DNA of 64,000 nt from contig JAHFCE010000004.1 in NCBI GenBank assembly GCA_023249675.1, positions 124,675 through 188,674 on the forward strand. The letters are read 5' to 3'. The DNA is from Elusimicrobiota bacterium. Lineage in GTDB: Bacteria; Elusimicrobiota; Elusimicrobia; UBA1565; UBA9628. The notes under the pieces are model-generated. The model was not told the origin of the DNA. It searched no databases and worked only from the letters and a program-made list of their open reading frames with translations. Positions within the stretch are counted from its first letter, which is position 1; each line of letters opens with the position of its first letter. Below, piece by piece: positions 6,969-49,320 of this stretch. Both the position numbers and the translations under genes were made by a program.

Positions 6969-8336
6969 ATGGTGAACGCGCCGAATCGATTCGCGATACT
7001 CGCCGTCGCCGTGTCGTTGGCGTCGCCGTCTTCGGCCCAGATGCGGGTCTCGGGAACCGTCGCTCCTGTGCCCGGCCTTGCCGCCCCGCTGATTCCGTTT
7101 TCTTCTTTTGCCGCGCCGGTTCTTCTGCCCGCGCTTCCCGTCGGCGTCGAGGCGGGCCGCGCCTATTTCGATGGAGCCCTCGCCAAGCCCGAGATTCGCC
7201 CGGCGGCGGCCGCTTCGGCGCGCGCTCCGCGCGGCGAGACCGTCGCGTTCAACGGTATCGTCCTTCCCGCCCGGATGTTTTCCGATCAGACGAAGATCTC
7301 GGAGCACTTGGTCCGCGCGATCGACGCCTCGCGGACCTCGATTGACATCGCGATTCACGGCCTCGCCCTGCGCGAGGTCGCGGCCGCCCTCGTGCGCGCG
7401 AAGAAGCGCGACGTGACGGTCCGCATCGTGATGAATCAGACCCACGTGTTTCCGGAAAAGCCCCGCGACACGCGCAGCCCCGAGGTGCAGCTGTTGATGG
7501 ACCAGGGTTTTGAGATGAAGATGCTGCGCGGCGGCGACATGTTCGGCGTCATGCACAACAAGATCGCAATTTTCGACAGCCAGGCTTTGGAGATGGGTTC
7601 GTACAATTGGAGCCACGCCGCCGACACCTGGCACTGGGAAAACGCGATGTTCCACGCCGAGCAGGCGCGCATCCAGGCGTACCAGGCGTATTGGGACTGG
7701 ATGTGGTCGGTCTCATCGGAGATCCCGGCCTCGGCTCCCCCGCGTCCGACGCCGATTCCCGAGGGCCAGCCGCACCCCAATCTGCCGCCCGCGCCGCAGG
7801 ACGGCGCTCGTCCGATCCAATTCAACGGCGAGGCGTTTCCGGCTCAGGCTTTCTCGCCGGGCGGCGTGACCGCGCACCTCGTGCGCGCGATCAACGTCTC
7901 GCGGGTCTCGATCGACTTGGCTAATTTCTCGTTCACCTCCGAGGTCTTGCGCGATGCTCTCCTGCGGGCGAAGGGGCGCGGCGTTGCGATCCGCATCGTC
8001 TTCGATAACGGCCAGTACAAATTTCTTCCCGAAATGCACTGGTTCGCGGAGAACGGCTTCGACGTCCTGCTTTCCCGCGGCAAGAGCGGAGAGAAGGGCG
8101 TCATGCACGAAAAGTTCGCGGTATTCGACGGCGCTTTGGTCGAAGCGGGTTCGTTCAACTGGACGCGCAACGGCGAGAAGAACAATTACGAGAATGCGAT
8201 GTTCCTCGACGCGCCCGATGACGCCGCGGCCTTTGCGGCGCAATTCCAGCGCATCCGCGATCAGGCCCGGGTGCCGGGGGCCGAGGACCATCAGGGCCCG
8301 CACGCCGCGCCCGAAGACATCAACCTCGAGCACTGA
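6969..8336 (+). CDS. Exported phospholipase D-like protein, two HKD motifs
   Basis: 455 residues: signal peptide (cleavage near SSAQ, residue 24), Ala/Pro-rich stretch, box AGRAYFDGAL (residues 62-71), then two homologous PLD domains. HKD motifs HNKIAIFD (His196) and HEKFAVFD (His380) are complete, each followed by a G-S-x-N-W segment. The two halves repeat each other (FNG-x-x-x-PA at both openings, then SIDIA/SIDLA), so the active site should form between them. A Pro-rich linker joins them (about 255-275). The substrate could be phospholipid, nucleic acid or another phosphodiester; PLD-like nucleases are equally possible. Acts outside the cytoplasm if the leader is functional. Confidence 0.9.
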   Translation: MVNAPNRFAILAVAVSLASPSSAQMRVSGTVAPVPGLAAPLIPFSSFAAPVLLPALPVGVEAGRAYFDGALAKPEIRPAAAASARAPRGETVAFNGIVLPARMFSDQTKISEHLVRAIDASRTSIDIAIHGLALREVAAALVRAKKRDVTVRIVMNQTHVFPEKPRDTRSPEVQLLMDQGFEMKMLRGGDMFGVMHNKIAIFDSQALEMGSYNWSHAADTWHWENAMFHAEQARIQAYQAYWDWMWSVSSEIPASAPPRPTPIPEGQPHPNLPPAPQDGARPIQFNGEAFPAQAFSPGGVTAHLVRAINVSRVSIDLANFSFTSEVLRDALLRAKGRGVAIRIVFDNGQYKFLPEMHWFAENGFDVLLSRGKSGEKGVMHEKFAVFDGALVEAGSFNWTRNGEKNNYENAMFLDAPDDAAAFAAQFQRIRDQARVPGAEDHQGPHAAPEDINLEH

Positions 8337-15409: not shown

Positions 15410-17320
15410 TTATCTTGGAGCGGCGCGCCGGTCCGCGAATTGGTTCACGAAGTCTGCGTCATTTTGTAGCGCCCAGTCCAGGTCGGCGGCGTTGAGGTCG
15501 CAGCGGGCGAGGATCGCCACGGCCTCGGCCGACGTGAAGCCGGAGACGGCGAGGTCGCTTAAGATCGCGGCCCGCGTCTCGGGTTTGGCGAGAAGGGCGC
15601 GCCACGCGCGCACGCCGGTCTGGTAGTCCTCGACGCGGTTGTGCGAAAAGCGGCTCATCCAGGGCATCTCGTACGTGATTCTTTCATCGGGGAAGCGGCC
15701 GGCGACGGGCCGGGAGCGGCCGAAGGCGTACTCGAAGTCGATGAGCCAGGGCAGGTCTTTGCCGCCCGCGGTGAATACGTTGCCGAGGTTCAAATCGGAG
15801 ATGCCGAACGTGTGGGCGAACAGAGCCATGGCCACGCGCTGCTCCCCATTGAACACGTCCTTATAGTAGGCTGGGGAACCGCGGACCTGCTCCATGACCA
15901 GATACGAGTCGTAGCCCCGCTTGACCGCGAGCGAGGCGGGCACGCGCACGTAGCGGCCGAAAAAGCGGCGTGCAAGGCGGCGCAGGGCGACCTCGTTGCG
16001 GATGATTTCCCATTTCGCGATCTTGACGACGAAGGGCGTTTTTCCCGACTCCTCGACGGCAAGGACAACCGTGTTCAGCTTGCCGGGGTCGTCGCCGTGA
16101 AGCTTGATCCGTGTTTTCGCCGACAACGGGTCGTAGCCGAGGCGCTTGGCCGCCTCGCCGGCGCTGACGATCGTGTCGTCGAGGCCGGCGGGGCCTTTCG
16201 GCGCCGGTCCGAAGACGAGGACCGGGCCCGCGGGCGCGGCGGCGTCGCGCCGCGCGAGCGCTTCCAGGGCGGGCGCTCCGGTTTTAGAGCCGCGCAGATC
16301 TTCGAGCGTCTTGGCCCACGGCGCGGAATCCGGGCCGAGGCGCGCGCGCAGTCCCGACAGGAATTCGACCGGGTCCACGCCCGCGAGGACCAGGAGATCG
16401 GGGTCCATCATCTGCTCGAGCACCGCGCGCGGTTTGCCGTCCGCCAGGCCGCTGCCGTCGACGATGACCCAGCGCCCCTCCCAGTGCTGCCACACGAGGT
16501 TGCCGCGAGCGAGGTCGGCGGTGACGCCGGCCTGGATGAGCTTGGCGGCCAACTCCGGCCAGCCTTCCGTCAGGAGGCGCGTGAACGCGCCGCGCTCGAG
16601 CAGGGCTTGAGCCGTTTCGCCCTTGATGAATTCCTTGACGAGTACTTGGCCGTCGCGGCTTTCGGCGAGGAGCTTGGCCACAGGCAGATTGGACTTGCCG
16701 ATCGCGCGCAGCGTCGCGGCTTCCTTGCGGACGCCGGAGAGATCGCGCGTGTCGGGATGCAGGATTTTAATTGCGTAGTTCTCATCGCGGGACTGCCACA
16801 CCGTCGACGTCCCGCCGCGGCCGACCACCTTGTCGAGCACCGTCTTGACCCGGCCGACGCGCACGACGTCCCCGGCCTTTCCCGGCCAGGCCGGGGCTGC
16901 CTCGCCGAGCGAGAGTAGGCCGCGGACCTTGCTCCACAGGCCGCCGGACGCGACGGCAGGCTCGGCGGCGCGCGCGCCGCTTTGGTCAAATAGGATGCGG
17001 CCCGCATCGACGTCGGCCTCAGGGAGCTCTTCCCGACGGGGGGCGGACGCGTCCATGGTCGCGGCGGCGGCGGGCTTTGCCGTCAGCGGCTGGACGAGGT
17101 TTGGGACCGGGGCCGCGACAGGCGTCGGATTCGCGGCGCTGACGCCCGTCAACGACGGCACGGTCAACTGAATCGGGATCGGAGCGCCGAGGGACGCGCC
17201 GACCGCGCCCGACTGTTTGCCGGGCGTGAGCTCTCCGGACGCAGGGAGGTCGATCTGGCCGGCCTGAAGGGGGCCGGCCAGGGCGAGCAGCAGAAAGGCC
17301 CGGACGGTGAGGGGTCTCAC
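15410..17320 (-). CDS. Exported protein with two tandem kinase-like domains
   Basis: 636 residues, GTG start. Signal peptide (1-20, PLQAGQ), Pro/Ala/Val-rich stretch, box AGRILFDQSG (FDQ at 111-113). First kinase-like domain about 155-350: Gly loop VGRGGTSTVW (166-175), Lys185 in AIKIL, catalytic loop DLARGN (Asp269, Asn274), DGS (Asp288). Second about 385-600: Lys433 in VVKIAK, Glu443, catalytic loop SDLNLGN (Asp509, Asn514), IDFEYA (Asp528). Both keep the ATP and metal residues, so both may be active. The second resembles lipid or small-molecule kinases more than Ser/Thr kinases. Being exported is odd for an ATP-using enzyme. Operon with the S41 protease. Confidence 0.75.
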   Translation of the reverse strand: MRPLTVRAFLLLALAGPLQAGQIDLPASGELTPGKQSGAVGASLGAPIPIQLTVPSLTGVSAANPTPVAAPVPNLVQPLTAKPAAAATMDASAPRREELPEADVDAGRILFDQSGARAAEPAVASGGLWSKVRGLLSLGEAAPAWPGKAGDVVRVGRVKTVLDKVVGRGGTSTVWQSRDENYAIKILHPDTRDLSGVRKEAATLRAIGKSNLPVAKLLAESRDGQVLVKEFIKGETAQALLERGAFTRLLTEGWPELAAKLIQAGVTADLARGNLVWQHWEGRWVIVDGSGLADGKPRAVLEQMMDPDLLVLAGVDPVEFLSGLRARLGPDSAPWAKTLEDLRGSKTGAPALEALARRDAAAPAGPVLVFGPAPKGPAGLDDTIVSAGEAAKRLGYDPLSAKTRIKLHGDDPGKLNTVVLAVEESGKTPFVVKIAKWEIIRNEVALRRLARRFFGRYVRVPASLAVKRGYDSYLVMEQVRGSPAYYKDVFNGEQRVAMALFAHTFGISDLNLGNVFTAGGKDLPWLIDFEYAFGRSRPVAGRFPDERITYEMPWMSRFSHNRVEDYQTGVRAWRALLAKPETRAAILSDLAVSGFTSAEAVAILARCDLNAADLDWALQNDADFVNQFADRRAAPR

Positions 17321-17326
17321 AAGGTC

Positions 17327-17332
17327 ACTATA
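17327..17332 (-). promoter_or_regulatory. -10 box of the tandem kinase gene (leaderless type)
   Basis: TATAGT on the minus strand, exactly 6 bases before the GTG at 17320; no ribosome binding site. Confidence 0.5.
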
Positions 17333-17369
17333 ACAGGAGTTCGGAGGGCGCGCCAGGGGGCTCGCGCGA

Positions 17370-18626
17370 CTAACCTGTCAGCATCGTCCACGGCAGAGCG
17401 ATGATTTTCCTTCCCATTCGTGTCACCTGTCTGCCCGTGTGAACGAGGATTGCCCCGCTCGCCTCGGGGTGATCCCGGAGGAACGCCTCAAGGCCTTCGC
17501 AGTCGGCATAGTTGGGGGATTCTGTTAACTTGACCTCGATGGCGACGATCTTGCGCCCCCACTCCAGCACCAAGTCCACTTCGTTGCCTTTCATTGTGCG
17601 CCAATAGTAGAGGCGGAGCCTCGGCGTGAAGGTCCCGGCGAGAGCCTTTAAGTGATGGAAGATCAGGTTCTCAAAGAGCGCGCCCGCTTCCCGCGAGGCC
17701 GCAATCGAAGACTCGTCATGCAGGCCGCCGAGATGGGCCGCCAGAGCCGGATCGATCCAGTGGAGTTTGGGGGCCTTGATCAATCGCGTGGTCCGGTTGC
17801 GGGCGAACGCGGGGAGCCGGTCGATGAGACAGGTCGTCTCAAGGAGGTTGAGGTAGCGGTGCACCGTCGCTTGGGAAACGTGGGAGTCGCGTGCGACATG
17901 AGTTTGATTGATCAACTGCCCGCAGCGCAGCGCCAGGACTTCCATGACCGTGCGGAAGTCGGACAGGGACTCCACCTGGGAGAGTTGCCGAAGATCGCGC
18001 TCAAGATATGTCGCCGCGTAGCCCTCCCACCAGCGCGTCCGGCTCTCTGCCGTGGGCAAGGAGAGAAGGCCGGGCATGAAGCCCCGCGCAATCGCAGAAA
18101 TCGGATCTTGTGCATGAGTCGTCAGCGTCTCTTCGCGGGGTAACTTCCCTTCCAAGATGGCCGCGACGACCGCCGGAGGGTGGCGGCGTCGAGTCTCGCC
18201 CGTCGTCATGGGAAGGAGTGTGAGATAAACCGCCCGTCCGGCCAGGCTTTCGGAGACGTGCCGCATCAAAAGAAGATTCGCGGAGCCCGACAGGACGAAG
18301 CGCATCCTGCGTGGATGCTCGTCCACGGCCTGCTTGACCGCGGAAAGAATGCCGGGAAGACGCTGAACCTCATCCAGGATCACGTGATCTGCGCCCGCCC
18401 AGAGGCTCGCGGGGTCGCGCTCCCCCTGCCGCAAGGCGTTCAAGTTGTCGAGGGTGATGTACTTCCAGCGCTTGGTCGGTTCTTCGTGCCGGAGAAGGGT
18501 GCTCTTGCCCACCTGGCGCGCTCCGGTGAGGACCACGACCGGGTGCTCGGCGACGGCCCGCCCGAATTGGCGCGCGAGCCAGCGAGGGAGAAAATTTAAT
18601 TCTTCGACTGAATCGTTTTTATTCAC
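17370..18626 (-). CDS. AAA ATPase with DUF4143 domain
   Basis: 418 residues, GTG start. Walker A TGARQVGKSTLL near residue 35, Walker B VILDEVQRLP, sensor LSGSANLLLM, then a winged-helix-like region (VARDSHVSQATVHRYLNLLE) and a C-terminal DUF4143 nuclease-like domain with GNEVDLVLEWGRKIVAIEVK, which has the E-VD-EVK pattern of restriction-like folds. The family is common in accessory regions and its role is not settled. Cytoplasmic. TATAAT lies 7 bases before the start, overlapped by a small palindrome. Confidence 0.92.
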   Translation of the reverse strand: MNKNDSVEELNFLPRWLARQFGRAVAEHPVVVLTGARQVGKSTLLRHEEPTKRWKYITLDNLNALRQGERDPASLWAGADHVILDEVQRLPGILSAVKQAVDEHPRRMRFVLSGSANLLLMRHVSESLAGRAVYLTLLPMTTGETRRRHPPAVVAAILEGKLPREETLTTHAQDPISAIARGFMPGLLSLPTAESRTRWWEGYAATYLERDLRQLSQVESLSDFRTVMEVLALRCGQLINQTHVARDSHVSQATVHRYLNLLETTCLIDRLPAFARNRTTRLIKAPKLHWIDPALAAHLGGLHDESSIAASREAGALFENLIFHHLKALAGTFTPRLRLYYWRTMKGNEVDLVLEWGRKIVAIEVKLTESPNYADCEGLEAFLRDHPEASGAILVHTGRQVTRMGRKIIALPWTMLTG

Positions 18627-18697: not shown

Positions 18698-19156
18698 TCA
18701 GGGGTTTGCGACGAGCGCCTGCATCTTGCGCAGATACCCGACCATCGCGGCCAGGCCTTTATAGGGAACTCGAACGCCCTTCTTGGACCAGCCTTTGTAC
18801 TCCGGCTCGTCCACCCACTCGCGCAGATCGATGCCGACCGTGTCCTTGTACAGCGTGACGCGGACCACGAGTTCGACGCCCGTCTTTTTCGGCACGCGCA
18901 ACAGCTCCTTGTCCTCGCCGGCCGCGGGTTCGGCCGGAAGCTGCTCGAGAACGGGGATCGTCTCGCTGAGGACGCGCGCGTTCAACGTGACGCCCGCCTT
19001 GGTGGGGCCGGTGTAGGCGTCGCCTTTCACGAAGGTGCGGATCGAGCCGTAGCGGTGGCCTTTGTACTCGTCCACGTAGAACTTGAGCTCGCTGGTCTCG
19101 CTCAGCGCGATCGCGCCCAGCTCCTGCAGAGGCTTGAATTCCTTGGCTTCGGCCAT
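18698..19156 (-). CDS. Tandem PC4/p15-like single-stranded DNA-binding protein
   Basis: 152 residues containing two copies of the PC4 (transcriptional coactivator p15) fold. Copy 1: ELKFYVDEYKGHRYGSIRTF followed by GPTKAGVTLNARVLSETIPVL. Copy 2: RVTLYKDTVGIDLREWVDEP followed by GWSKKGVRVPYKGLAAMVGYL. Each has the strand-strand-strand-GKKGI-helix order. Bacterial PC4/YdbC proteins usually have one copy and dimerise to bind single-stranded DNA, so two copies in one chain may make a pseudo-dimer. Cytoplasmic, expected role in transcription, replication or repair. TAATAT lies 5 bases before the ATG. Confidence 0.8.
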   Translation of the reverse strand: MAEAKEFKPLQELGAIALSETSELKFYVDEYKGHRYGSIRTFVKGDAYTGPTKAGVTLNARVLSETIPVLEQLPAEPAAGEDKELLRVPKKTGVELVVRVTLYKDTVGIDLREWVDEPEYKGWSKKGVRVPYKGLAAMVGYLRKMQALVANP

Positions 19157-19292
19157 GAGTCATATTAGCAAATGGGCCCATCGTGGATTGGGTCCAAAGA
19201 CTACGATGAGCTTGCCCGGAGGACTGAGAGCGGTCCGAGGGCGATTAACTACCATGGCCTTCAGGATCGTGCTGAAAAATCGGAGGAATACC

Positions 19293-22196
19293 ATGGTGTT
19301 CAAGAAGTCCCTTGCTTCGGTCGTGTCGGCCGCCCTTCTCATGGTTGGCCCCGGACCTCTCGCGGCGCAGATGATGACGCGCGGCCCCGTCGCGGTTTCC
19401 GTGACCCCGACCATTGGGGCTGGTCTCAACAGCCCCGTTCCGGGCGCTTCCTCAAATATCCCGACCTTGGCCCCTGTCGGTGCCTTGACGGGGTCGATCG
19501 TACCGGCCGCTCCGGTCCCCGTCGCCGCCGTCCAGCTCCGGGCCCTGGCCGCATCGGATTCAGGCTCGCCTCTTGCCGTGATCCAGTCCCAAGATCCCGC
19601 GGTGGGCGTCGACAAGAAGGGCGCTGCGCTCGCGGTTCTGTTCGATCAGGCACCGGTCACCGGCTCCGAGAGCATCGCGGCGCTCGGCCAGTCCGACGGC
19701 GAGAAAATCGCGCAGGAGTTTGAGCAAGCGGTGACGAAAATAGCCGTGTATTACGAAAAGGAGGGTGTCAATCAGGAGCTTCTCTCAAAGCAAGAACTCC
19801 AGGACTTGACGTCTCAATTGAACTACGTCAGCGGCCTGCCCGACAGCCAGATCCCCGCGAAGTCCCTGGGCTATCTCGAGGGTGTCAGCATCGCCATCAT
19901 CAAGTTTCTCAAGGTAAGGAGGAATCGCAGCGAAAATGGCGTCAAAGCCGCTGGAGAGGCCGCTGAGAGGCTGCGCGCGAAAGTGGTCGCCATACCGAAT
20001 CCGACTGCCGCCAAGGCGGGCCCGACCGTCGCGGTCTCGGCGGAGGTCCAGTGGCTTAAGAAATTCAGCGACGAAAACAGAGACAAGATCCTGGGTATCA
20101 AAGGAGTCAATAGCGTTTGGGTCCGAGAGACCGCCTTGGTCGTCTACCTGAATGGTTCCGTGCCGCTGGCCAAAGTGAAGCGAGCGTTGCTGAGAAAATT
20201 CCCTGCGCTCAAAGATCACCTCGTCCAATATGAGGTGATAGGCTGGGCTTCGTTTGGGGGCGACCAGGGGTTGGCGCCGGTCGGGGCCATCCAGCCCCAG
20301 GCCCTCGCCGCAGCGGCTGACGGTCTCTCATCGGCCCAGAAGAGCCTCAGGAAATTCGAAAAAGAAAACAGCGCCAAGATTTTGAGCGTCGAAGGAGTCA
20401 ACAGCGTCGGCATTGGGTTCAGCGAAGATGGCTCCGAGAGTCTGGTCATTACCTTGGATAAATCCGCGTCGCTCGTCCAAGTGAAGGAAGCCCTGCTCAG
20501 CAAGGTTCCTGAGCTGAAGCTGTATCCGGTCAGCTACGAAGTGAGGTCGTGGAGACCCGCAGCCATCGAGAAATTCAAAAGAGAAAACAGCGCCAAGATC
20601 CTGAGTGTGAAAGGAGTCGGTAGTGTTGGAACCGGTGACGGCAAGGCCGTGGTCGTCTATTTGGATGGCTCCGTACCGCTGGCCAAGGTGAAGCAAGCAT
20701 TGCTCAGGAAAATCCCTGCGCTCAAGGATTATCCAGTCAAGTATAAGGTGATAGGTCCTGTTGTGCTTCAGGCCTCCGCGCAGTCTTCGCCGGTCGGGGC
20801 CTTGCCTCCCCATGTCGTCAAGGGTCGGGAGCAGGATCTGAAGTCCTACTTGGCCCTCCTGGGAGTCGATAGTGTTCAGGTGCGTCTGTATGCCGATGCC
20901 CCAAACGGTTTGGCCGGCGGCCCCAACGTTGTTTCCATTGAGTTGCCGGCTTCTCTCAAAATACTTTCGCTGAGTCAACAGTATGAGGAGATTGGCAAGG
21001 TCTTCCAGCTTTTGCAGACGAGCTTGCCGCAGTGGCCATGGCTGGCGGGCAAGATATTTGAAGTCGGCATCCAAACGAGGCACACTTACCGCAACGCCAT
21101 TCCCTTTCCCGGCCGACCGCTCTCCGCGAAAGCCGCCCAGGCGGTTTTGACCCAGCTGGGAAAGGCGCTCATTGCGGCCTACTCAGAGCCCGTGGCTGGA
21201 TTGTCTCCCGAGGCCCGCACGGTCGAACAACGCCCGGCTGGTTCCGAGGACGTCCTGCAATTCATCAGAAAAGGCGGCTGGGTGCTTTATGAGCGCGAGC
21301 ATACGCCGGGGCGCATTTCCGCCCAAGACTATTACCTCGTTTGGTCTGGGCGGGTTGGCCCGGCGGGATCTCGCGTGCAAGCGGTCGCCACGTCGAACCC
21401 GACTGCTCCCGCCGTCAGCGCGGCGACCAAGGCGAATGTCCACCCCCAGGTGCTTGAGGAGATTAGGCGCCATGAGCCGCGCATGGAAACCGCTCTGACG
21501 TTGTGGGGAGAGAACGGGAAGGACTTGGACCAGCCGGAAGTCTTCGCGCGCAGGGCGGAAGCCGTCCTGGCCCGTGTGGGCAAGATCGTCGGCGAGACAC
21601 CGCAGGCACATAATGTCTTCCGTCGTATGCAGAGCTTGGTGGTGGCTGCCAGTTGGCGCTACGTGGAAGAACTCCTCAAACAGCCTGAGGTGCGCAGCGC
21701 CTTGCCGAATCATCCCAACGACGTGACCAACGAGGACGTTCAAATCAAGAGCTTCAACGAAAGGTATGCTCAACTCGTGGCCATTCTCAAGATGGCCGGA
21801 TCAGTGGGCGATGCGAGTATCAGCATATCAGGTACCGATGCCGACGCACTTAAGGATTCTTGGATTATCAATTTTTTGCTACCAGCCCCGAAGGGATTGA
21901 TGACTTACATGTTGTCTTCCCCTGAGTCGACCCGGGGGCGCTCCCAAGTGTATTACGATGAAATAAAAAAATCGTATCTCTATCGCGAATCGGATATAGC
22001 AGGTTGGACAAATCTTTATGTTCAACTCAGCAATGATGGTCAACAAGTTGTGGGGTTGAAATTGGATAAGACTTTGCCTGACAGAAATGGAGTTTACACA
22101 GGCGAGGTTTATAACACAGGCCTCGTTGTGGGAACTGTCCGCGGCAAGGTGATCATTACGGACAAAAGCGGCCGGCCCATCGGCGCGCAGGGATAA
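19293..22196 (+). CDS. Large exported protein: shared leader cassette plus ferredoxin-like repeats
   Basis: 967 residues; ATG 19293 with GGAGG 7 bases upstream. Signal peptide (1-26, LAAQ), Ala/Pro/Val-rich leader and box AALAVLFDQ (117-119), nearly identical to the next gene. A helical stretch follows, then three clear repeats of about 65-75 residues, each beginning with NSAKILSV-x-GVNSVG or a close variant and containing SVPLAKVKQALLRKIPALK, with a fourth divergent copy near residue 520. The alternating strand-helix-strand pattern suggests small ferredoxin-like units. The remaining 400 residues match no family I know. Probably periplasmic or surface located. Confidence 0.8.
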   Translation: MVFKKSLASVVSAALLMVGPGPLAAQMMTRGPVAVSVTPTIGAGLNSPVPGASSNIPTLAPVGALTGSIVPAAPVPVAAVQLRALAASDSGSPLAVIQSQDPAVGVDKKGAALAVLFDQAPVTGSESIAALGQSDGEKIAQEFEQAVTKIAVYYEKEGVNQELLSKQELQDLTSQLNYVSGLPDSQIPAKSLGYLEGVSIAIIKFLKVRRNRSENGVKAAGEAAERLRAKVVAIPNPTAAKAGPTVAVSAEVQWLKKFSDENRDKILGIKGVNSVWVRETALVVYLNGSVPLAKVKRALLRKFPALKDHLVQYEVIGWASFGGDQGLAPVGAIQPQALAAAADGLSSAQKSLRKFEKENSAKILSVEGVNSVGIGFSEDGSESLVITLDKSASLVQVKEALLSKVPELKLYPVSYEVRSWRPAAIEKFKRENSAKILSVKGVGSVGTGDGKAVVVYLDGSVPLAKVKQALLRKIPALKDYPVKYKVIGPVVLQASAQSSPVGALPPHVVKGREQDLKSYLALLGVDSVQVRLYADAPNGLAGGPNVVSIELPASLKILSLSQQYEEIGKVFQLLQTSLPQWPWLAGKIFEVGIQTRHTYRNAIPFPGRPLSAKAAQAVLTQLGKALIAAYSEPVAGLSPEARTVEQRPAGSEDVLQFIRKGGWVLYEREHTPGRISAQDYYLVWSGRVGPAGSRVQAVATSNPTAPAVSAATKANVHPQVLEEIRRHEPRMETALTLWGENGKDLDQPEVFARRAEAVLARVGKIVGETPQAHNVFRRMQSLVVAASWRYVEELLKQPEVRSALPNHPNDVTNEDVQIKSFNERYAQLVAILKMAGSVGDASISISGTDADALKDSWIINFLLPAPKGLMTYMLSSPESTRGRSQVYYDEIKKSYLYRESDIAGWTNLYVQLSNDGQQVVGLKLDKTLPDRNGVYTGEVYNTGLVVGTVRGKVIITDKSGRPIGAQG

Positions 22197-22229: not shown

Positions 22230-22997
22230 ATGTTCAGACAGTCTCTTGCTTCGGTCGTGTCGGCCGCTCTTCTCATGGTCGGCCCCGGACCGCTCTCCGC
22301 GCAGATGATGAGCCGTGGCCCCGTCGCGGTTTCCGTGACCCCGACCATTGGGGCTGGTCTCAACAGCCCCGTTCCGGGCGCTTCCTCGAATATCCCGACC
22401 TTGGCCCCTGTCGGCGCCTTGACCGCGTCGATCGTACCGGCCGCTCCAGTCCCTGTCGCCGCCGTTCAGCCCCAGGCCCTTGCACCTGTGACGGCTCAGG
22501 GCTCGCCCCTGGCCGTGATCCGGTCTCAAGACCCCGCGGTCGGCGTCGACAAGAAGGGCGCCGCGCTTGACGTGCTGTTCGATCAGTCCGCCGCCGCCGT
22601 GGATGGCACGGCCGCGGGACCCATCCTGGGACAACCCGAGCCCGCCAAGCCGTCCGCTCCCAACGCGGCCGGCATCGTGCTCGGTCTGACGGCGGCCGCC
22701 AGGGCCCTGGAGAGCAGGACCTCGGGCTACGGCAATGTTGATTTCTGGGTCCATCACCACGCCATGCGCCGAGACATAGGCAACGCGGTCGCTGACTCGC
22801 TGACGGCGATTTCCAGGGCCACGGACGACCGCTTGCTCGCGTTCGAGCTCCAGCGGCTGGCCGAGGACTTGCGCGCGGCGCCTCAGAAGGGTTACGGCAA
22901 CGTCGACTATTGGACCGATCTTTGCTCTCGCCAGGATACGGCGTTTGCGCGCATTGCCTCGCGTTTGCGCCAACTGAACGACTTGCCGCGGCCGTAA
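22230..22997 (+). CDS. Exported protein: duplicated leader cassette with a new C-terminal domain
   Basis: 255 residues, ATG preceded by GGAGG. Residues 1-119 (signal peptide to box ALDVLFDQ) are almost the same as in the preceding gene, including a 71-base run of perfect DNA identity. After the box the two proteins are unrelated. The C-terminal part has two related segments, SGYGNVDFWVHHHAMRRD and KGYGNVDYWTDLCSRQD, each followed by a helix, so it is an internal duplication with no known family. It lies 33 bases after its neighbour and is probably co-transcribed. Function unknown. Confidence 0.8.
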   Translation: MFRQSLASVVSAALLMVGPGPLSAQMMSRGPVAVSVTPTIGAGLNSPVPGASSNIPTLAPVGALTASIVPAAPVPVAAVQPQALAPVTAQGSPLAVIRSQDPAVGVDKKGAALDVLFDQSAAAVDGTAAGPILGQPEPAKPSAPNAAGIVLGLTAAARALESRTSGYGNVDFWVHHHAMRRDIGNAVADSLTAISRATDDRLLAFELQRLAEDLRAAPQKGYGNVDYWTDLCSRQDTAFARIASRLRQLNDLPRP

Positions 22998-46140: not shown

Positions 46141-47862
46141 GTGCGCGCGCTTGCTCTCGCCGGTCTCATCGTCCTGTCGGCCTGCGGCACGGCGCCGCGT
46201 AAAGCTCCCGCGACTTTGGCGGAAGCTCGCGCCGCCCTGCAGTCCGACGACGCCGCGGCGCGCGCGAGGGCCGCGTGGGACTTGGGCCAGATCGGCCTGG
46301 CCGAGAGGGACGAGGGCGCGCCCGAGCCGGCCACCGCGATTTCACTGCGCGGGGCCGCGGTCGCGGCCTTGATTCCCAGTGTCTTGGACCCCGAGGCCCC
46401 GGTGCGGCGCGCCGTTGTCGGTGCGCTGGGCAAGGTCGGCGGCCCCGAGGTCGAGGACGCGCTGCTGTCCGCGGGCACCGACGTAGACGCAGGCGTGCGC
46501 GGAGAAATCGCCTTGGCGTTGTTTCGGCGCCGGTTTCTCAAGCGCGTGCCCGAGTACTCGACCGCGAGCGTGAATAAACTTTTGACGCTGGCCGCTGATC
46601 CCGATCCCGAAGTCCGTTGGCGCGCGGTGTATGCCTTCACGCGTTTCCCCGATGTCCGGGCGGAGAAGATGTTGGCGGCCGCGGAGAGGGACGCCGACGC
46701 GGCCACCCGCCTTTTTGCCGTTCGATCCCTTGCAAAGCTTGGCCGTTCCGCGGATCCGGCTGTGCTTTCGGACCCCGATCTCTACGTCCGCGCCGAGGCC
46801 GTCGCTTCGTTCGGCGCCGCCAAGGCCGCCGCGGATCTGCCCATTTCTATTTTTTCCGATCCGTCCGCTCATGTCCGCGCCGCCGCGGCCGACGCCGTCG
46901 CCGCGACGGGCGCATCCAGGCTCGCGGACCGTCTCGAAAAAATGGCGGATGGAGATAGCCCAATGCCGCGCGGCCGCGCCTTGCTCGCGCTGGCCAAGCT
47001 TCGCGGCGGCGCCGAAGCCGCGCGTCTTGCGCGCGCGCGCCGGAACCCGCATTGGTGGATTCGCTCCAAGGCCTACGAAGCGAGCGCCGCTTTGCCGGAC
47101 GCCGCCGCGATCCTCAACGCGGGCGTCGCGGATGCGGACGCGCGGGTCGCCGCGCAGGCGCTTGACAGTTTGGCCGCCTCGACTTCACCGCTTGCCGCCG
47201 CCGCGATCGAGAGAGTCCTGCGCGATCCGCAGTCTCAACTGGAGCTTCTGGGCACGGCCGTCGACGCCGCGGGCGAGCGCAAGTCTGCGGCGTTCGCCGC
47301 GGCCCTGCGCATGGCGCGGCGGCGCGGGGATCTCACCGCGGAAATTCGCGACGCGCTGCGCCAGGCGCTCAAGGCTTCCGGCGTCAAGGTTTCGGCCGGG
47401 TCCGCGCTCGACGCGCCGAAGACGTTCGCGCCGCTGTCCGCGCCGCAAACCTTAATTCTGGACACCGAAAAAGGCACGGTCGAGCTTCTGCTCGATGCCG
47501 CGGCCGCGCCCAACACCGCCGCCGCGATCGCGGCGATGGCGCGCCGGGGCGTCTACGATGGGACGATCTGGCATCGCGTCGTGACCGCCTTCGTCGTGCA
47601 GGGCGGCGATCCGCGCGGGTCGGGTTGGGGCGACGCCGGCTTTCGGCTCGCGGACGAGGTCAACCCGGCGCCTTTCCTGCGCGGAACGCTCGGCATGCCC
47701 AAGGCCGGGCCGGACACGGGCGGCTGCCAGTTGTTCGTGAGCCTCGTGCCCGCGCCGCATCTCGACGGCCGCTACACCGCCTTCGGCCATGTGGTCTCGG
47801 GCATGGACGTCCTCGACGTCCTCGAGCCGGGCGACAAGATACTAAGAGCGCGTCTTCGCTAA
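46141..47862 (+). CDS. HEAT-repeat lipoprotein with C-terminal cyclophilin-type prolyl isomerase
   Basis: 573 residues from GTG 46141, fixed by TATAAT 6 bases upstream. Lipobox LSAC at about residue 14. Residues about 20-430 are HEAT repeats (AAWDLGQIGLAE, VRRAVVGALGKVG, VRWRAVYAFTRFP and more). The last 140 residues are a cyclophilin domain: LILDTEKGTVELLLD, NTAAAIAAMARRGVYDGTIWHRV, FVVQGGDPRGSGWG, GTLGMPKAGPDTGGCQLFVS, DGRYTAFGHVVSGMDVLD. It probably assists folding at a membrane surface, with the HEAT part as docking surface. Ends in a convergent overlap of 21 bases. Confidence 0.9.
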   Translation: MRALALAGLIVLSACGTAPRKAPATLAEARAALQSDDAAARARAAWDLGQIGLAERDEGAPEPATAISLRGAAVAALIPSVLDPEAPVRRAVVGALGKVGGPEVEDALLSAGTDVDAGVRGEIALALFRRRFLKRVPEYSTASVNKLLTLAADPDPEVRWRAVYAFTRFPDVRAEKMLAAAERDADAATRLFAVRSLAKLGRSADPAVLSDPDLYVRAEAVASFGAAKAAADLPISIFSDPSAHVRAAAADAVAATGASRLADRLEKMADGDSPMPRGRALLALAKLRGGAEAARLARARRNPHWWIRSKAYEASAALPDAAAILNAGVADADARVAAQALDSLAASTSPLAAAAIERVLRDPQSQLELLGTAVDAAGERKSAAFAAALRMARRRGDLTAEIRDALRQALKASGVKVSAGSALDAPKTFAPLSAPQTLILDTEKGTVELLLDAAAAPNTAAAIAAMARRGVYDGTIWHRVVTAFVVQGGDPRGSGWGDAGFRLADEVNPAPFLRGTLGMPKAGPDTGGCQLFVSLVPAPHLDGRYTAFGHVVSGMDVLDVLEPGDKILRARLR

Positions 47863-49320
47863 ACCCGACTCGAGCGCGCGTCGGCGCGCCTTTTCGAGAT
47901 ACTGCCGGGCAAGCTCCGGGTCGGAGGAACGAAAACGCCGCGCGAGAAGGCTATATCCCTCGACGCTCAAGGCCGGCATGCGCGCGCGCTGATCGGCGAG
48001 GACCTGGCGGTAGTAGCGGGACTCCGTGTGAGCGAACAGCGCATAGGTGGCGGAGGAATCGTCGACCCTTGATTCGAGGTAGGCGTCCAGGTCGTCTAGG
48101 AAGAGGCTATAGTTGGACAGGTCATACACGGCAGCCAGCGGGTCGGCCCGGAGCTTCTCATGGACATACAGTCGGTCGGCGATGTTGGCTTCGTACTCGA
48201 GCTCCACGGTCAGGTAGCGGTGGAGCTGGCGGGGAAAGCGCTCGAGCTGGCCGGGCTGGATGACTTTGCGGAACTGAAGGGCGTGAAACAGTTCGTGGAA
48301 GAGCAGCTCGTCCGCCTCGCGTGCCAGCTGCCCCCGCTTTTCCGGGGTCGCGAGGAACTCCTTCACGGTCCAGCCGCGGGACGTGATCACGGCAGGATCC
48401 AGGAAAACGCCGTTGAGCACCGGGAAGGAAAAGCCATCCGCATTGTTCAGGCGCGCGATGAAGAATTTCGGCGGCCGCAGGACGCCGAAGCGATCTCTGA
48501 GGCCGTCGAGAAGCTTGCGTCCTTCGCTGTTCTTGGAGAGCACCGCGACGACCTCACGGCCGAAATCGGGATCGACGGCGCGCACCTCGCGGCTCGGGAC
48601 GACGAGGCGCGCTCCCGTCTCGATGATGTCGCGCGAGAACAAGAGAGGGGTGATCCCCAGGACGACGCCCAGGAGCAGGCCGAAGCCCGTCATCGCGGCT
48701 TTTGCGCGACGAGGGCGGTTCTTGGCTGGGCCCGTCGTACGGCGCGCCGCGCGGCGCGCCACGGCGTTGATCGCCCACAGCGCGCCGGCTCCGGCGGCGG
48801 CGGCCGCCGCCGTGTAGACCATCATGAGAGCCGGCGCCGCCTGGAGAACGACCGGCGCGGCGATCGCCGCGGCGGCGCCCGCGGCGACGGCGGTCTTGAA
48901 GCGGACCTTTTCCGTCCGGGCGAGCTGAGAGGGTCGCGGCGTGGAGGGCGGCGCGGATTCGCCGGGGAGAGCCGGGGCGCTTTCCGGTCGCGCGCCGTCG
49001 AAGCGCAGGCGGGCGCCAGGCTCCGGCTTTGCATCGGCGGAGAGCCCCGCGAGGCTTTCGAGGGGCGTCTCGGGCACCCGCCCCGGGTTGGGGATTGCAG
49101 CGGGCGTCGCGGGAATGGGCGTCGGGAGAGCGGCCGGCACGCCCGCGATGGAGGGCGCGGCCGGGAAAACCGCGGGTTCGGCCATGCGTGCCGAGAGCGG
49201 AGCCGGCGCGGAGGGAATGCTTCGGGGCGCCTCCGGCCGCGCGATCGGCGTCGCCGCCCGGGCGACCTCTCCCGAGACGAGCAACAACGAAAGAAGCGCC
49301 GCTGCGGCCTTTCTGATCAT
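47842..49320 (-). CDS. Exported membrane HEXXH metallopeptidase-like protein with leader box
   Basis: 492 residues; TATAGT lies 6 bases before the ATG. Signal peptide (1-22), Pro/Ala-rich stretch, box GARLRFDGAR (FDG at 107-109). Two hydrophobic segments (about 140-190 and 205-225) precede the catalytic part: HELFH at 342-346 in LFHELFHALQFRK and a Glu in VELEYEANIADRL about 25 residues later, the zinc-peptidase set. The C-terminal 120 residues are helical. Likely a membrane zinc protease; family not identified. Confidence 0.78.
   Translation of the reverse strand: MIRKAAAALLSLLLVSGEVARAATPIARPEAPRSIPSAPAPLSARMAEPAVFPAAPSIAGVPAALPTPIPATPAAIPNPGRVPETPLESLAGLSADAKPEPGARLRFDGARPESAPALPGESAPPSTPRPSQLARTEKVRFKTAVAAGAAAAIAAPVVLQAAPALMMVYTAAAAAAGAGALWAINAVARRAARRTTGPAKNRPRRAKAAMTGFGLLLGVVLGITPLLFSRDIIETGARLVVPSREVRAVDPDFGREVVAVLSKNSEGRKLLDGLRDRFGVLRPPKFFIARLNNADGFSFPVLNGVFLDPAVITSRGWTVKEFLATPEKRGQLAREADELLFHELFHALQFRKVIQPGQLERFPRQLHRYLTVELEYEANIADRLYVHEKLRADPLAAVYDLSNYSLFLDDLDAYLESRVDDSSATYALFAHTESRYYRQVLADQRARMPALSVEGYSLLARRFRSSDPELARQYLEKARRRALESGLAKTRS

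What the first reader, a model, noticed from the sequence alone, without database searches (positions are those of the whole stretch)
15410..17320. Exported protein with two complete kinase-like active sites
Both domains keep the nucleotide Lys, catalytic-loop Asp/Asn and metal Asp (Lys185, Asp269, Asn274, Asp288; Lys433, Asp509, Asn514, Asp528), yet the protein carries a signal peptide and leader box. Extracytoplasmic kinases in bacteria are rare. It might act in the cytoplasm before export, use exported nucleotide, or be an AMPylase or other non-classical kinase-fold enzyme.
Basis: partly seen in the sequence, partly recalled or inferred. Interest (0 to 1): 0.7.

Follow-up and report, generated by a model that had tools for sequence, protein, structure and literature searches.

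The report
Exported two-domain kinase-like protein
An uncultured Elusimicrobiota bacterium appears to send outside its cytoplasm a protein made of two kinase-shaped domains, one of which keeps a complete active site in every relative examined, which is puzzling because kinases need ATP and ATP is thought to be scarce there.

Summary
Window 15410-17320 (-) encodes a 636-aa protein with a Sec signal peptide and two kinase-fold domains; all eight named residues are as stated. Models are confident (pLDDT 88.8, 90.5). Domain 1 is closest in fold to Bud32/PRPK, domain 2 to PI4K-II/PI3K and RIO2.

The sites are not equal. In 19 orthologues domain 2 keeps Lys/Glu/Asp/Asn/Asp in 19; domain 1 keeps its four named residues in 9, lost at least twice.

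Export is well supported by inference. No helix leads back to the cytoplasm, whereas five canonical kinases of the same genome have one before the kinase. The two domains hold 1 cysteine in 9402 residues, against 60 in 6309 for 16 presumed cytoplasmic window proteins. The gene lies beside prc in 12 of 22 fetched loci.

Relatives join such leaders or domains to GGDEF or HD-GYP domains, also cysteine-free. I propose an envelope phosphotransferase working through domain 2, with domain 1 a partner drifting to pseudokinase. Substrate and nucleotide source are unknown.

The parts
15410..17320 (-). CDS of the exported two-domain kinase-fold protein (636 aa, GTG start), called KIN here
   Evidence: 19 full-length orthologues aligned
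17261..17320 (-). Sec-type signal peptide, residues 1-20 (cleavage near LQA/GQ inferred)
   Evidence: simple rule; no twin arginine; no SignalP available
16931..17260 (-). Pro/Ala/Val-rich leader, residues 21-130, fast evolving
   Evidence: dN/dS 0.51-0.86 in four pairs; first 86 residues 69% identical to the leader of a GGDEF protein elsewhere in the genome
16982..16993 (-). leader box LFDQ, residues 110-113
   Evidence: F111 and D112 19 of 19; FD[GQ] box found behind a signal-like stretch in four other window ORFs
16235..16867 (-). kinase-fold domain 1 (about residues 152-362), Bud32/PRPK/APH-like; K185, E200, D269, N274, D288
   Evidence: model m15d907113102, best fold match PRPK Z 15.1; named residues intact in 9 of 19 orthologues
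15413..16225 (-). kinase-fold domain 2 (residues 366-636), PI4K-II/PI3K/RIO-like; motif LHxDDPGKLNT 407-417; K433, E443, D509, N514, D528
   Evidence: model m3f73bcca466e pLDDT 90.5; PI4KII-alpha Z 12.6; K, E, D, N, D 19 of 19
17327..17335 (-). TGTTATAGT, an extended -10-like element 6 bases before the GTG; start may be leaderless (inferred)
   Evidence: TGTTATA[GT]T before the GTG in window, L033-L036, L043, L002, L028, L029; one base differs in L024
13148..15403 (-). prc/tail-specific protease gene, starts 6 bases after the KIN stop; likely same operon
   Evidence: TSP_NTD 1.3e-45, Peptidase_S41 2.8e-44; adjacent in 12 of 22 fetched loci
18698..19156 (-). PC4-like gene, conserved neighbour on the other side
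   Evidence: PF02229 1.4e-11; found near KIN in 7 of 22 fetched loci
17370..18626 (-). AAA_14/DUF4143 ATPase gene lying between the PC4-like gene and KIN in the window
   Evidence: no match in the 22 loci fetched

Best explanation
KIN is made with a Sec signal peptide, crosses the inner membrane and folds in the periplasm or at the cell surface (supported by inference). There domain 2, a PI4K/RIO-like atypical kinase, is the working phosphotransferase, which uses a nucleotide to modify an envelope component, possibly a lipid, sugar or protein (inferred). Domain 1, a Bud32/APH-like kinase fold, is a partner or regulator that can still be an enzyme in this genome but has lost its site at least twice elsewhere, much like a pseudokinase paired with an active kinase (inferred). 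Expression next to Prc, a periplasmic protease, suggests a shared role in envelope maintenance (inferred).
For: Signal peptide in 14 of 15 orthologues with complete N-termini. No membrane helix between signal peptide and kinase domains, whereas five canonical kinases of the same genome have a membrane helix ahead of the kinase domain. Cysteine exclusion: 1 in 9402 residues of domains 1+2 from 19 orthologues, 18 with none, against 60 in 6309 for 16 presumed cytoplasmic window proteins and 1 in 2109 for five exported window proteins. Domain 2 catalytic set 19 of 19, domain 1 9 of 19, at least two changes on the tree. Purifying selection on both domains. Confident kinase folds. Adjacency to prc in 12 of 22 fetched loci, kept in L053 although prc is turned round.
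Against: No activity, substrate or localisation was measured. ATP is not expected at useful concentration outside the cytoplasm (recalled). The prc link is absent in the f2 lineage, where a ceramidase-like gene follows in the one locus tested. The +2 position of the domain 2 catalytic loop is Asn, not the Lys of protein kinases or His of PI3K (both recalled). Fold matches rank families only loosely (Z 12.6 for a 271-residue model).
Confidence: 0.45

Rival explanations
1. KIN is an exported effector: released from the cell and acting inside another cell, where ATP is available.
For: Distant domain 2 relatives sit in toxin-like architectures: L087 (3254-aa frame, open at its N end) has FHA, GGDEF and a C-terminal EndoU nuclease domain, and EndoU is described as a frequent polymorphic-toxin domain (PMC3482391, passages). 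L098 carries domain 2 ahead of a long C-terminal region that I read as ADP-ribosyltransferase-like by eye (no Pfam match). It would solve the nucleotide problem.
Against: KIN itself is single copy, vertically inherited, syntenic with prc and lacks any recognised toxin domain; no delivery module or immunity gene was seen next to it.
Confidence: 0.2
2. The domains are no longer enzymes; KIN is an exported binding or scaffold protein that uses two kinase folds to bind nucleotides, glycans or lipids.
For: Domain 1 has lost catalytic residues in 10 of 19 orthologues; nucleotide supply outside the cytoplasm is doubtful (recalled).
Against: Domain 2 keeps the Lys, Glu, Asp, Asn, Asp set 19 of 19, and the set is mostly kept in distant relatives (printouts), which a pure binder would not need.
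Confidence: 0.2
3. KIN acts in the cytoplasm: the signal peptide is inefficient, or the enzyme works before export.
For: ATP is there; cytoplasmic kinases are the rule (recalled; no call).
Against: Sec substrates cross unfolded (established knowledge); 14 of 15 orthologues keep the signal peptide; near-total absence of cysteine.
Confidence: 0.1

Closest known systems
Type II phosphatidylinositol 4-kinase / PI3K-PI4K catalytic domains (PF00454)
   Same: Best fold match of domain 2 (PI4KII-alpha Z 12.6, rmsd 4.2-4.6, 211-219 aligned; VPS34 Z about 10-11.5). Distant relatives of domain 2 in L090, L091 and L098 show GDMH or SDLH in the catalytic loop, as I recall PI3K's GDRH.
   Different: Sequence match is weak (PF00454 in 3 of 22 members, best 0.043); catalytic loop GDxNxGN with DFE; exported; no lipid substrate known.
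RIO2 atypical kinase/ATPase
   Same: Best Foldseek hit (1zar 6.2e-5) and best sequence-profile hit in the PDB for domain 2 (0.0015); loop GDFNEFN and IDFPQ resemble GDxNxGN and IDFEQ (alignment).
   Different: Cytoplasmic ribosome-biogenesis factor (recalled); query TM-scores of RIO2 rows only 0.31-0.36.
Bud32/PRPK (KEOPS kinase) and APH phosphotransferases
   Same: Best fold matches of domain 1 (PRPK Z 15.1, APH Z 11-12.5).
   Different: Cytoplasmic enzymes (recalled); domain 1 is exported and loses catalytic residues in many orthologues; no NCBIfam cut-off reached.
Fam20A/Fam20C secretory pathway kinases and bacterial CotH
   Same: Kinase-fold proteins outside the cytosol; Fam20 pairs a secreted pseudokinase with an active kinase (PMC7948968, passages); CotH is a Fam20C-like spore-coat kinase (PMC12189002, passages).
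   Different: No match to either family in the Pfam scans or among the shown fold rows; two kinase folds in one chain; whether this bacterium makes spores was not examined.

Membership tests
Protein-kinase-like fold superfamily (domains 1 and 2) | two-lobed kinase fold | tested here: met
Protein-kinase-like fold superfamily (domains 1 and 2) | Lys, helix-C Glu, catalytic Asp, +5 Asn, metal Asp | tested here: met
   window protein has both sets; domain 2 19 of 19, domain 1 named residues 9 of 19
PI3K/PI4K (PF00454) | score over the family's curated cut-off | tested here: not met
   weak matches only, 3 of 22 members, best E 0.043
PI3K/PI4K (PF00454) | kinase fold of the PI4K type | tested here: inconclusive
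   best Z 12.6, but RIO2 leads in Foldseek
PI3K/PI4K (PF00454) | phosphorylates inositol lipids | not testable with these tools
   needs enzyme assay
RIO kinases (PF01163) | score over the family's curated cut-off | tested here: not met
   RIO1 model matches 7 of 22 members at best 0.0036; not listed for the window protein at E up to 1 or up to 10
Bud32/PRPK | score over the NCBIfam cut-off | tested here: not met
   20.2 bits against cut-off 188
APH phosphotransferases (PF01636) | score over the family's curated cut-off | tested here: not met
   weak matches in 6 of 22 and 4 of 17 members; PF01636 not listed for the window protein; NCBIfam APH_3p 20.3 bits against cut-off 205
CotH, Fam20C, SelO, HipA | fold or sequence match | tested here: inconclusive
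   not among the rows shown nor among Pfam matches; absence of a row does not exclude
Sec-exported proteins | signal peptide and no later membrane helix | tested here: met
   rule-based, not SignalP

The most novel reading that the evidence does not exclude
Elusimicrobiota run a nucleotide-dependent signalling or modification suite outside their cytoplasm: exported kinase-fold, GGDEF and HD-GYP domains, sharing a leader of the same type, free of cysteine and with no helix leading back to the cytoplasm. KIN is one member; another in the same genome joins a near-identical leader to GGDEF domains, and in relatives domain 2 is fused to an HD-GYP domain (L020) or to two GGDEF domains (L100).
Probability: 0.3. 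Interest if true: 0.85.

Novelty: new variant of a known kind. Interest (0 to 1): 0.62.

Why it matters
Kinases are expected only where ATP is. A conserved bacterial family whose kinase-fold site is strictly kept while the protein is exported and cysteine-free makes a sharp question testable: is there usable nucleotide outside the bacterial cytoplasm, or do these enzymes act in another cell? The domains are well conserved and cysteine-free, which should help expression and assay.

Tried and rejected
Chance resemblance: rejected by profiles, models and orthologues. Return helix to the cytoplasm: none found. Twin-arginine export of a folded protein: no RR in the signal peptide. Paralogue-rich expansion in this genome: only one copy plus the leader-sharing gene. 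Phage or defence origin: PHROGs gave only scattered weak matches for domain 2, and PADLOC only weak matches for the window protein, all in domain 1 (PD-T4-6, 5e-6). Relation of domain 1 to the kinase-like stretch before the GGDEF of L002: not supported (hhalign probability 0.3%). Domain 1 against domain 2: aligned over the stretch leading to the catalytic site only, E 2.1e-5, probability 77%. HD-GYP and GGDEF controls of the own genome contain cysteine. SelO, CotH and HipA rows were absent from the fold lists shown; this is not evidence against them. Literature: of nine searches I read listings only, except passages of PMC9758233 (and one section), PMC12189002, PMC3482391, PMC7948968 and PMC12453122; none of the listings showed a bacterial exported GGDEF or this protein, and one search listed 15 of 105 papers.

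Rows dropped: of the loci the full-length alignment used 19; left out were one gene split over two contigs (L013/L029), one frame-broken copy (L015/L030), fragments and single-domain relatives (L024-L028, L031, L032), the leader-sharing gene (L002, L003) and matches without a locus. A1 also left out L017 and L023 (stop in the matched stretch); A2 and A3 left out L043 (frame-broken). The 16 cytoplasmic proteins were my choice of window ORFs without evident export signal; they were not all annotated.

Full report
What is there. The ORF at 15410-17320 on the - strand encodes 636 residues from a GTG. The genome is an Elusimicrobiota assembly by its relatives; of the 22 fetched loci most are named Elusimicrobia or Elusimicrobiota, three only 'bacterium'. 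The chain begins MRPLTVRAFLLLALAGPLQA, a Sec-type signal peptide, followed by about 110 Pro/Ala/Val-rich residues holding an LFDQ box, then two kinase-fold domains.

Fold. AlphaFold2 on residues 120-636 with 21 related sequences gave pLDDT 88.8 and pTM 0.86. The best structural neighbours span domain 1: PRPK/Bud32 Z 15.1, APH Z 11-12.5, then protein kinases. Domain 2 modelled alone gave pLDDT 90.5, pTM 0.90. Its neighbours differ: PI4K-II alpha Z 12.6 (211-219 residues aligned), VPS34 and other PI3Ks Z about 10-11.5, with RIO2 first in Foldseek at 6.2e-5 and first by sequence profile at 0.0015. By sequence, domain 1 resembles protein kinases (Fyn 2.4e-7, PknA 1.6e-6). No Pfam or NCBIfam cut-off was reached by the window protein. 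So the protein joins two different subclasses of kinase fold.

The two sites are not equal. In 19 orthologues domain 2 keeps K433, E443, D509, N514 and D528 in 19 of 19, together with LHxDDPGKLNT before the Lys (G413, K414, L415, N416, T417 19 of 19). Domain 1 keeps K185, D269, N274 and D288 together in 9 of 19, and a tree of domain 2 needs at least two changes. Domain 1 is nevertheless under purifying selection in close relatives (dN/dS 0.30-0.48, domain 2 0.33-0.44, leader 0.51-0.86, prc 0.21-0.24; four pairs). Relatives with domain 1 alone (L024, L031, L032) keep its site.

Is it exported? Four signs. First, 14 of 15 orthologues with a complete N-terminus pass a simple signal-peptide rule. 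Second, there is no hydrophobic segment in KIN that could return the chain; in some relatives Ala/Pro-rich leader stretches just pass the threshold. Of six canonical Pkinase proteins of the same genome, five have a membrane helix ahead of the kinase domain, three of them with a signal-like N-terminus too; the sixth (L112) has its kinase domain at the N-terminus. Third, cysteine: 1 in 9402 residues of domains 1+2, 18 of 19 orthologues with none; 60 in 6309 for 16 presumed cytoplasmic window proteins; 1 in 2109 for five exported window proteins; 5 in 1202 for the five canonical kinase domains. At the cytoplasmic rate about 89 would be expected. Cysteine exclusion is in print for Gram-positive bacteria (title seen in a reference list; paper not held). 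Fourth, the neighbour Prc is itself signal-peptide bearing.

Context. prc starts 6 bases after the KIN stop. Of the 22 loci fetched, prc lies next to KIN in 12: 11 downstream on the same strand and one (L053) turned round but still adjacent. A PC4-like gene is nearby in 7 of 22. The AAA_14/DUF4143 gene between PC4 and KIN matched in none of the 22. Some of the 22 contigs end close to KIN, so absences are partly unknown. In the f2 lineage prc is not seen and the next gene in L046 is a neutral ceramidase-like secreted protein (Ceramidase_alk 2.4e-12); by eye the same gene follows in L047, and traces in others were not tested.

Family. Domain 2 was found in 29 of 340 Elusimicrobiota genomes at E up to 1e-4; a scan of one genome for each of 84,980 species returned only the 22 loci listed (exact pattern pre-filter, so distant members would be missed). 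Distant members occur in large proteins: L087 (3254-aa frame with FHA, GGDEF and a C-terminal EndoU domain) and L088 (DnaJ, RamC_N). Catalytic residues are mostly intact there, with exceptions (L092, L100 degenerate; L096, L097, L099 with Asp for the Asn; L093 with Ala) read by eye.

A wider pattern. The own genome has one other gene with a near-identical leader (69% over 86 residues), followed by GGDEF domains (PF00990 4.3e-18) and 0 cysteine in 779 residues. In L020 an HD-GYP domain (HD_5 1.4e-33) precedes both KIN domains behind a signal peptide (0 cysteine in 928); in L100 two GGDEF domains precede domain 2 (0 in 984). Three other GGDEF and two HD_5 proteins of the own genome have 1-3 cysteines each. 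Not all relatives are cysteine-free: L088 has 10, L090 4 and L091 5. The GGDEF motifs of the exported ones are imperfect (GGEEI and GGKEF in L101), so activity is uncertain. This motivates the novel case: nucleotide enzymology outside the cytoplasm, or delivered to other cells.

How it most likely works. Shown by sequence and models: fold, export signal, conservation pattern, synteny. Inferred: location outside the cytoplasm; domain 2 as the enzyme; domain 1 as partner; envelope substrate; link with Prc. Not shown: nucleotide source, substrate, chemistry. Fam20A/Fam20C gives a precedent for a secreted pseudokinase helping a secreted kinase (PMC7948968, passages), and CotH for a kinase fold in a spore coat (PMC12189002, passages); neither is shown to be related.

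Verdict. A genuine, conserved and puzzling exported kinase-fold protein; a new variant of a known kind (extracytoplasmic kinase-fold enzymes).

Noticed in passing
window 16982-16993 (-); also ORFs at 6969-8336, 19083-22196, 22230-22997, 47842-49320: A short box (x-F-D-G/Q, often LFDQ) follows the signal peptide and an Ala/Pro/Val-rich leader in five exported window proteins (aligned), two of which (19083 and 22230) share a leader; F111-D112 of KIN is invariant in 19 orthologues. Could be a sorting or processing signal.
   Followed up: partly
window 17327-17335 (-) and loci L002, L024, L028, L029, L033-L036, L043: TGTTATAGT-like element just before the GTG start, shared between KIN orthologues and the GGDEF leader gene: suggests leaderless transcripts and copying of promoter plus leader as one cassette.
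   Followed up: partly
L101 3156-5702 (+), L028, L100 2542-5613 (-), L020 226-3084 (+): Signal-peptide proteins with GGDEF or HD-GYP domains, no clear return helix and no cysteine (the L028 GGDEF was read by eye).
   Followed up: partly
L087 3-9764 (+): Giant protein (3254-aa frame, N-terminus beyond the contig) with PVEPGGK-type repeats, FHA, GGDEF, a domain 2 relative and a C-terminal EndoU nuclease domain, resembling a polymorphic toxin.
   Followed up: partly
L088 6024-10694 (-): Signal-like N-terminus, DnaJ, RamC N-terminal domain and a domain 2 relative in one chain, reminiscent of class III lanthipeptide synthetases but with 10 cysteines.
   Followed up: no
L046 1573-3081 (+): A secreted neutral ceramidase-like gene follows KIN in place of prc in the f2 lineage.
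   Followed up: partly
window 17370-18626 (-): AAA_14/DUF4143 ATPase gene lies between the PC4-like gene and KIN here but matched in none of the 22 loci: probably an insertion.
   Followed up: no
window 19083-22196 and 22230-22997 (+): Two adjacent exported proteins with near-identical leaders (SLASVVSAALLMVGPGPL, GVDKKGAAL.VLFDQ), apparently a leader duplication.
   Followed up: no
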